A stretch of 53,943 nucleotides of DNA. It comes from Candidatus Gastranaerophilales bacterium. Lineage in GTDB: Bacteria; Cyanobacteriota; Vampirovibrionia; Gastranaerophilales; Gastranaerophilaceae. The stretch spans positions 1 to 53,943 of the forward strand of contig CALUTF010000010.1 in assembly GCA_944323595.1 (NCBI GenBank), read 5' to 3'. Shown here piece after piece: positions 2,440-53,943 of the stretch. The notes under the pieces are model-generated. The model did not search any database. It was not told the origin of the DNA and was given only the letters and a program-made list of their open reading frames with translations. Positions within the stretch are counted from its first letter, which is position 1; each line of letters opens with the position of its first letter. The translations under genes and the position numbers were made by a program.

Positions 2440-2484
2440 TTATTTGAACCTGTGCTCTCTTAAATATTTTTACATGAAAAAAAC

Positions 2485-2556
<72 letters not shown>

Positions 2557-2584
2557 AGAGTATTTAATTGTGAAGTAGGGAATT

Positions 2585-2752
2585 TGTGGCGGCGGTAGCG
2601 GCGCTACCTTTCCTCTCCTCAAACGTGACATTTAGTCACGTTTTCGTCGGCAGAGTGCCACAGTCCCGAAGAATTTTGTGCAATCTACACAAAATCGAGA
2701 ATATTAAATTGTCAAGCTTTGAAAAATTGGTCGGTAGCATTCCACAATTTCG
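2585..2752. repeat. tRNA-5'-end-associated repeat element, tRNA-Met copy
   Basis: On the 5' side of tRNA-Met, going away from the gene, I see: an inverted partial copy of the tRNA 5' half (2585-2600, 16 matching bases with a 2-nt gap); a 6-bp hairpin GGTAGC/GCTACC (2594-2608); a perfect 9-bp hairpin AAACGTGAC/GTCACGTTT (2621-2643); CGG plus six bases; then an exact 11-nt copy of the tRNA start (2657-2667). An 8-bp hairpin ATTTTGTG/CACAAAAT follows (2673-2695), and then a decayed second copy of the CGG-N6-tRNA-start module (2731-2752). The same architecture recurs beside tRNA-Ala at 53702-53943. No protein-coding capacity is seen. Confidence 0.75.
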
Positions 2753-53592: not shown

Positions 53593-53665
53593 TGGAGCGT
53601 AGGGGATTCGAACCCCTGACCCCGACACTGCCAGTGTCGTGCGCTACCAACTGCGCTAACGCCCC
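53593..53665 (-). tRNA. tRNA-Ala (GGC anticodon)
   Basis: A 73-nt cloverleaf on the minus strand: acceptor GGGGCGT/ACGCTCC with a G-T pair at position 3-70, the alanine identity element; D stem GCGC/GCGC; anticodon stem CGACA/TGTCG with loop CTGGCAG giving GGC; T loop TTCGAAT; discriminator A. No CCA is encoded. Its 5' flank carries a tandem repeat made with its own first 11 nt (53702-53943). Confidence 0.94.
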
Positions 53666-53701
53666 TTCTGTCGGTTGATTAAGCTATTCAATTATCATGG
53701 T

Positions 53702-53943
53702 GGCGAGCGCAGTATCCCCCCACCCAAAATCAGACATTAAGTCAGATTTTGTGCGGGTCCCTGCTAACGCCCCGCTTGATTAAGATATTTAATTATCATA
53801 ATGGTGAGTACATTAACTCTCACCCAAAATCCGTCATTGAGTCAGATTTTGTGCGGGTTTCTGCTGACGCCCCGCTTGATTAAGATATTTAATTATCATA
53901 ATGGTGAGTACATTAACTCTCACCCAAAATCCGTCATTGAGTC
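53702..53943. repeat. tRNA-5'-end-associated tandem repeat, tRNA-Ala copy (continues past window)
   Basis: Going away from the tRNA-Ala start: an inverted partial tRNA copy GGCGAGCGCAGT (53702-53713, 12 matches with a 2-nt gap); a hairpin around AGACATTAAGTC; CGG plus six bases; then an exact 11-nt copy of the tRNA start (53763-53773). A second 100-bp unit (53774-53873) ends in the same 11 nt with one change (53863-53873), and a third unit identical to it so far runs off the window. Each unit also has a GGTGAG/CTCACC hairpin and a conserved AT-rich box (AATTNAATANCTTAATCAA) just before the tRNA or tRNA fragment. Compare 2585-2752. Confidence 0.85.

What the first reader, a model, noticed from the sequence alone, without database searches (positions are those of the whole stretch)
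2585..2752. Repeat element that copies the first 11 nt of tRNA-Met, with an inverted tRNA copy and a GACATTWAGTC hairpin
The 11-nt start of tRNA-Met reappears exactly at 2657-2667 and diverges from nt 12 on. It is preceded by CGG-N6 and a perfect hairpin with core GACATTTAGTC. Between hairpin and tRNA lies an inverted 16-base partial copy of the tRNA 5' half. A decayed second unit follows at 2731-2752 with the same CGG-N6 spacing. The tRNA-Ala locus 51 kb away has the same plan with its own tRNA sequence. Mobile elements normally use tRNA 3' ends; a 5'-end element that picks up its host tRNA's sequence is not something I can name.
Basis: seen in the sequence. Interest (0 to 1): 0.75.

Follow-up and report, generated by a model that had tools for sequence, protein, structure and literature searches.

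The report
Hairpin arrays copying tRNA gene ends
Gut-dwelling relatives of cyanobacteria carry a short hairpin DNA element that sits inside partial copies of tRNA (and other RNA) gene ends, stacked in tandem beside the intact gene, an arrangement for which I found no published description.

Summary
The window's genome (Gastranaerophilales) has exact or near-exact copies of tRNA nt 1-11 upstream of 10 of 38 tRNA genes, against 4 of 1363 swapped-flank controls. Mirror-image units occur at tRNA 3' ends, at a tmRNA 3' end and beside 5S-like sequence. Each unit carries a conserved 45-bp hairpin (H: ACTCTGCCGA-stem-GACTAAATGTC-stem-GAGAGG) inside a truncated D-arm or T-arm copy. An inverted copy of the arm and a duplicated leader or trailer often follow. 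Units form 90-111-bp tandem arrays. H occurs in 107 of 219 sampled genomes of one family and in 0 of 22 from other families of the order. It also occurs dispersed at the tips of other palindromic repeats. The copied end matches the genome's own tRNA, not another lineage's (45 of 46). Best explanation: a lineage-specific miniature palindromic element, REP/RPE-like, that enters hairpin arms. At essential RNA genes only events that also duplicate the gene's end and flank survive, and the result amplifies in tandem. How it moves is not shown; no transposase family tested tracks it. A specific 5'-end element is not supported, since 3' ends are used too. New variant of a known kind.

The parts
2484..2557 (-). 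tRNA-Met(cat), the intact target gene
   Evidence: ARAGORN; Rfam tRNA 68.9 bits
2558..2574 (-). AT-rich leader TTCACAATTAAATACTC before the tRNA (motif TTGAnAATTnAATA seen before most 5' units)
   Evidence: read; same motif at other loci
2578..2600 (-). inverted partial copy of the tRNA-Met 5' part (CGCTACCGCCGCCACAAATTCCC)
   Evidence: I1: 23 nt, 78% complementary; p=0.005 against shuffles
2601..2608 (-). direct copy of tRNA D-loop/D-stem 3' part (GGTAGCGC), continuing the truncated tRNA copy after the hairpin
2612..2656 (-). 45-bp hairpin H, ACTCTGCCGACGAAAACGTGACTAAATGTCACGTTTGAGGAGAGG
2657..2667 (-). exact copy of tRNA-Met nt 1-11 (GGGACTGTGGC)
2673..2695 (-). small hairpin ATTTTGTG..CACAAAAT in the distal leader
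   Evidence: read
2702..2715 (-). distal leader motif TTGACAATTTAATA
   Evidence: read
53593..53665 (-). tRNA-Ala(ggc), second target in the window
53672..53820 (-). gene-proximal tRNA-Ala unit: leader, inverted copy, hairpin variant (core GACTTAATGTC), copy of nt 1-11 at 53763-53773, and the leader of the next unit
53821..53943 (-). second unit (94% to the first over 100 bp) and a third cut by the contig end
   Evidence: families D1-D3

Best explanation
A 45-bp hairpin (H) is a miniature palindromic repeat of one bacterial family that colonises the tips or arms of hairpin-forming DNA: other intergenic palindromes, and the D-arm or T-arm of RNA genes. At RNA genes the hairpin is found in an extra, truncated copy of the gene's end that lies outside the intact gene, together with a copy of the leader (5' side) or terminator region (3' side). 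The probable path is: (1) H enters the D-arm or T-arm while the region is single-stranded and folded; (2) replication or repair of the blocked hairpin switches template back to the flank, duplicating flank plus gene end, often with a fold-back (inverted) piece of the arm; cells that keep one intact gene survive; (3) the unit, a direct repeat, then expands into a tandem array and is homogenised with the gene. Shown: the anatomy, the 5'/3' mirror symmetry, family restriction, own-tRNA tracking, filled against empty orthologous sites, tandem homogeneity, structural covariation of H, and alternative hairpins at the same site of other palindromes. Inferred: the order of steps, template switching, and that H moves actively.
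For: Swapped-flank control: 10/38 (5') and 4/32 (3') against 4/1363 and 2/1194. Of 243 distinct H copies in fetched loci, 93 lie at tRNA 5' ends, 23 at tRNA/tmRNA 3' ends, 35 more before a duplicated 11-mer, 37 at contig ends, 55 elsewhere; breakpoints cluster at tRNA position 11-12 (57/93) and 17-20 (26/93), and at 10-14 from the 3' side. Units lie outside the gene on either side, with the ACTCTGCC side of H against the gene-end fragment. 3' units of tRNA-Leu(caa) lie beyond a terminator-like hairpin that is itself duplicated in the unit, which argues for a DNA-level process there. Initiator tRNA-Met locus: empty in most genomes read (e.g. L145, L170), filled in L114, L123, L153, L167, L169, with promoter-like sequence and leader retained distally and a leader-like sequence repeated before the intact gene. 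Tandem unit 90 bp x 4.4 at 98%. Direct continuation of the tRNA after H p<=0.01 in 56/106 units, inverted copy p<=0.01 in 44/106. Own-tRNA tracking 45/46. 97 distinct 45-bp H: positions 18-32 pair as GC 36, CG 28, AT 24, TA 6. Dispersed palindromes hold H, another hairpin or a short loop at the same point.
Against: No enzyme found: H presence is not associated with Y1 (RAYT-type) transposases (p=0.39), reverse transcriptases (p=0.13) or IS110 (p=0.13), and the window's genome has no Y1 transposase match. I saw no copy that is plainly a fresh insertion inside an otherwise full-length RNA gene. About half of the units lack a significant inverted copy, so the fold-back step is not universal. In some units H replaces about 5 nt of the D-arm rather than inserting cleanly. 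Sequence conservation of H across genera could also mean selection for a function.
Confidence: 0.48

Rival explanations
1. Ordinary tandem duplication of tRNA ends came first by polymerase slippage, and H landed later in these dispensable copies because its target sequence is there.
For: Some partial copies carry a different hairpin instead of H (L024, L171, L043). L219 and L144 are direct duplications without an inverted copy, joined at TTGA microhomology.
Against: Nearly every partial copy that I read holds some hairpin in the arm, so hairpin and duplication seem linked; but loci outside G000 were chosen by the H pattern.
Confidence: 0.22
2. The unit is a functional RNA: a tRNA-like leader (outer stem from tRNA nt 1-11 with its inverted copy, H in the D-arm place, a second hairpin) that controls maturation or expression of the adjacent tRNA.
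For: Several 5' units fold as a closed three-way junction, the window's Met unit most neatly. H covaries across genera. At the initiator tRNA-Met locus the unit lies between the promoter-like sequence and the gene.
Against: Mirror-image units at 3' ends put H on the opposite strand and, at tRNA-Leu(caa), past a terminator-like hairpin. H also sits at dispersed palindromes. Most genomes read lack a unit at the initiator Met locus. No Rfam family matches the unit.
Confidence: 0.15
3. H is a REP-type element moved by RAYT (HUH tyrosine) transposases, and the arrays are REP clusters that happen to lie in tRNA remnants.
For: RAYT-like genes and GTAG/CGTC-tagged REP-like hairpins occur in these genomes; in L182 a RAYT gene with such hairpins sits exactly in the tip of an H in a tRNA-Phe array. 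REPs inside palindromes are described (PMC3733652).
Against: H carries neither a GTAG nor a CGTC tag at its foot (by eye). Y1 presence does not track H (39/68/34/78, p=0.39). 15 of the 25 genomes with most H lack a Y1 hit.
Confidence: 0.1
4. Units are integrated copies of a tiny circular or RNA-guided element (integrase, integron-like or IS110 bridge-RNA-like) that recognises tRNA ends and brings a replacement gene end with it.
For: The arrangement gene end - element - intact gene resembles elements that restore their target gene, and many units hold a direct copy of one part and an inverted copy of the next part of the target.
Against: No coding capacity in 90-111 bp. IS110 found in only 11 of 219 family genomes and not associated with H. 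Units of different tRNAs have different ends, so no single circle could serve. No exact H pattern in IMG/VR.
Confidence: 0.05

Closest known systems
REP / REPIN elements and RAYT REPtrons (e.g. GTAG- and CGTC-tagged REPs, PMC3733652)
   Same: Short imperfect palindrome, many copies per genome, mostly intergenic, clusters, sometimes nested inside other palindromes
   Different: No GTAG/CGTC tag seen, no association with RAYT genes, placed inside truncated copies of RNA gene ends whose sequence follows the host gene
Rickettsia palindromic elements (RPE), from general knowledge
   Same: Small hairpin element found within genes, including RNA genes, tolerated because of its folded shape
   Different: RPEs lie inside the functional gene; here the functional RNA gene stays intact and the element lies in an extra partial copy
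Small dispersed repeats (SDR) of filamentous cyanobacteria, from general knowledge
   Same: Tiny mobile-looking repeats in a sister lineage, often nested in other repeats
   Different: Different sequence; no tRNA-end duplication known to me
tRNA-targeting integrative elements and satellites
   Same: Use a tRNA end as target and leave the gene intact beside a partial copy
   Different: Those are kilobases long with an integrase; these units are about 100 bp, non-coding, tandem and tRNA-specific in sequence
Template-switch inverted duplications (ODIRA-type, PMC10766183, abstract only)
   Same: Template switching generates direct plus inverted copies through hairpin-ended DNA
   Different: Described for copy-number variants of much larger segments, not for tRNA ends in bacteria

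Membership tests
REP/REPIN (RAYT-mobilised) | Short imperfect palindrome in many copies | tested here: met
   45 bp, up to 31 pattern matches per genome; covarying stem
REP/REPIN (RAYT-mobilised) | GTAG- or CGTC-type tag at the foot of the palindrome | tested here: not met
   Feet are ACTCTGCC and GAGAGG in all 97 canonical 45-bp copies (the search pattern itself required these feet)
REP/REPIN (RAYT-mobilised) | Co-occurrence with a RAYT gene | tested here: not met
   39/107 H-positive against 34/112 H-negative family genomes have Y1_Tnp, p=0.39
RPE-like element | Insertion within the functional gene | tested here: not met
   tRNA genes next to the units are called intact by ARAGORN
tRNA-targeting integrative element | Integrase gene carried by the element | tested here: not met
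   Units are 90-111 bp, too short to code for one
IS110 bridge-RNA system | IS110-type recombinase in the genome | tested here: not met
   None in the window's genome, 11 of 219 in the family
Known structured RNA | Match to an Rfam family | tested here: not met
   Only tRNAs reach the gathering threshold
Mobile element in general | Presence/absence at orthologous sites | tested here: met
   Initiator tRNA-Met locus filled and empty; palindromes with and without H
Mobile element in general | Transposition shown experimentally | not testable with these tools
   -

The most novel reading that the evidence does not exclude
A self-sparing element: a hairpin whose insertion is mechanistically coupled to copying of the target RNA gene's end and flank, from either side, so that each event leaves an intact gene and adds one unit whose arms are taken from that gene. 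This would be a way for a parasite without any coding sequence to live in single-copy essential RNA genes.
Probability: 0.25. Interest if true: 0.85.

Novelty: new variant of a known kind. Interest (0 to 1): 0.62.

Why it matters
It links a short mobile-looking hairpin to duplication of essential RNA gene ends in a whole bacterial family. It provides many natural replicates (tRNAs, tmRNA, 5S; both ends; filled and empty sites) for studying how hairpins enter DNA and how tandem arrays start. It probably also explains part of the assembly breakage of these gut genomes: in the window's genome about 9 of the 14 H sites or clusters lie close to a contig end (read).

Tried and rejected
Chance similarity: rejected by swapped-flank controls. 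Unit restricted to 5' ends or to tRNA: rejected. Association with Y1 transposase, reverse transcriptase or IS110: not found. Known RNA family: no match. Viral origin: no exact H pattern in IMG/VR. H-bearing MAGs labelled Muribaculaceae and Acinetobacter: GC 36% and 32%, DNA similar to other loci here, probably misbinned. The leader motif TTGACAATTTAATA as a promoter for the tRNA: judged unlikely because its distance to the tRNA varies from about 1 to 21 nt and canonical promoter-like sequence lies further upstream at the initiator Met locus. Paper searches for a description of such arrays found none in the open-access library; that is weak evidence, as many journals are missing.

Full report
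What is in the window. The finding was checked base by base. tRNA-Met (2484-2557, - strand) is preceded on its own strand by an AT-rich leader, an inverted copy of its 5' part (2578-2600), a short direct copy of its D-arm 3' part (2601-2608), a 45-bp hairpin H (2612-2656) and an exact copy of tRNA nt 1-11 (2657-2667). The tRNA-Ala locus at the other end of the window has the same plan with its own sequence, in at least three tandem 100-bp units cut by the contig end. The 'decayed second unit' at 2731-2752 is not better than chance by eye.

Chance control. 39 tRNA genes of the 2.05-Mb genome were found and their flanks fetched. Copies of the tRNA's first 11 nt matching at least 10/11 lie within 400 bp upstream for 10 of 38 tRNAs, against 4 of 1363 swapped pairs. 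On the 3' side (reverse complement of the gene end) the figures are 4 of 32 against 2 of 1194.

Anatomy. The cleanest array (L219, tRNA-Lys) is 90 bp x 4.4 copies, 98% alike: leader, tRNA 1-11, H, tRNA from the D-loop on, then directly the next leader, joined where tRNA and leader share TTGA. Other units add a fold-back: after H the tRNA continues (direct copy p<=0.01 in 56 of 106 units) and then runs backwards as an inverted copy (p<=0.01 in 44 of 106). The window's Met unit can fold into a closed three-way junction. At 3' ends the plan is the mirror image, with the T-arm in place of the D-arm and the terminator region in place of the leader. For tRNA-Leu(caa) the terminator-like hairpin lies between gene and unit and is duplicated in the unit. 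Units also occur at a tmRNA 3' end (L105) and beside what I read as 5S rRNA (L090, L108).

The hairpin. 97 distinct canonical 45-bp copies share ACTCTGCC, GAC-TNAAT-GTC and GAGAGG (these were the search anchors), while the stem varies in a paired way (position 18 with 32: GC 36, CG 28, AT 24, TA 6). A minority have other tips on the same base, such as GATTAAGTATC or GCCAGTGGC. H is found in 107 of 219 genomes of the same family and in 0 of 22 from other families of the order (Fisher p=1.2e-6). In G001, 27 copies are mostly dispersed inside other palindromic repeats. In two such palindrome families the same tip holds either a short loop, another small hairpin, or H.

Own-gene tracking and filled against empty sites. 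Where an isoacceptor differs between genomes, the copy follows its own genome's tRNA in 45 of 46 cases and another's in none; units had been chosen for resembling their tRNA, so this is a comparison among similar sequences, not a blind one. The initiator tRNA-Met locus is empty in most genomes read and filled in a few. The filled ones keep the promoter-like sequence and leader distally, followed by the first nt of the tRNA, H, and then a leader-like sequence before the intact gene. Target preference: in G000 tRNAs whose D-stem starts GCGC carry 5' units in 6 of 7 cases, others in 4 of 31 (classified by eye, p=0.0005).

Mechanism. The mirror symmetry, the position beyond a terminator at a 3' end, and the dispersed copies argue for a DNA-level process. 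I favour entry of H into a folded D-arm or T-arm coupled to, or rescued by, duplication of gene end and flank through template switching, followed by tandem expansion. The coupling is inferred. The alternative that partial duplications came first and H landed in them comes second. A RAYT gene with REP-like ends sits in the tip of one H (L182), so hairpins here do receive hairpins, but Y1 transposases do not track H, nor do reverse transcriptases or IS110.

Limits. All genomes are draft or metagenome-assembled as far as their contig numbers and titles show, arrays break contigs, H counts are lower bounds, and loci outside the window's genome were chosen by the H pattern or by one tRNA, so the shares are not genome-wide rates.

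Noticed in passing
G004, G011, G044, G081, G086 and others: Perfect 45-nt copies of the 3' part (nt 33-77) of initiator tRNA-Met lie 2-19 kb from the intact gene on the same strand, and copies of nt 1-39 in other genomes (G059, G198); they overlap at the anticodon loop, which suggests kilobase integrative elements crossing over there from either side.
   Followed up: no
L182:987-1850: A RAYT-type transposase gene with GTAG-type inverted ends is inserted exactly at the tip of an H hairpin in a tRNA-Phe 3' array.
   Followed up: partly
L179, L182, G001 loci: GTAG/CGTC-tagged REP-like hairpins (GGTTGGGC..GCCCAAC) are common in the stretches read from these genomes.
   Followed up: no
L022, L049, L087: A second hairpin class, AGGACTCCG or AGGGACCCC with tip GATTRAGTATC, takes the place of H in some units.
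   Followed up: no
L010 (G000:C2:114360-114489): Two units of tRNA-Phe type with no tRNA gene found in the 2.1 kb fetched around them.
   Followed up: no
L201, L236: H in MAGs labelled Muribaculaceae and Acinetobacter; low GC and similarity to other loci suggest misbinned contigs.
   Followed up: partly
window 53721-53943: The window's contig ends inside the tRNA-Ala array, so the true number of units is unknown.
   Followed up: no
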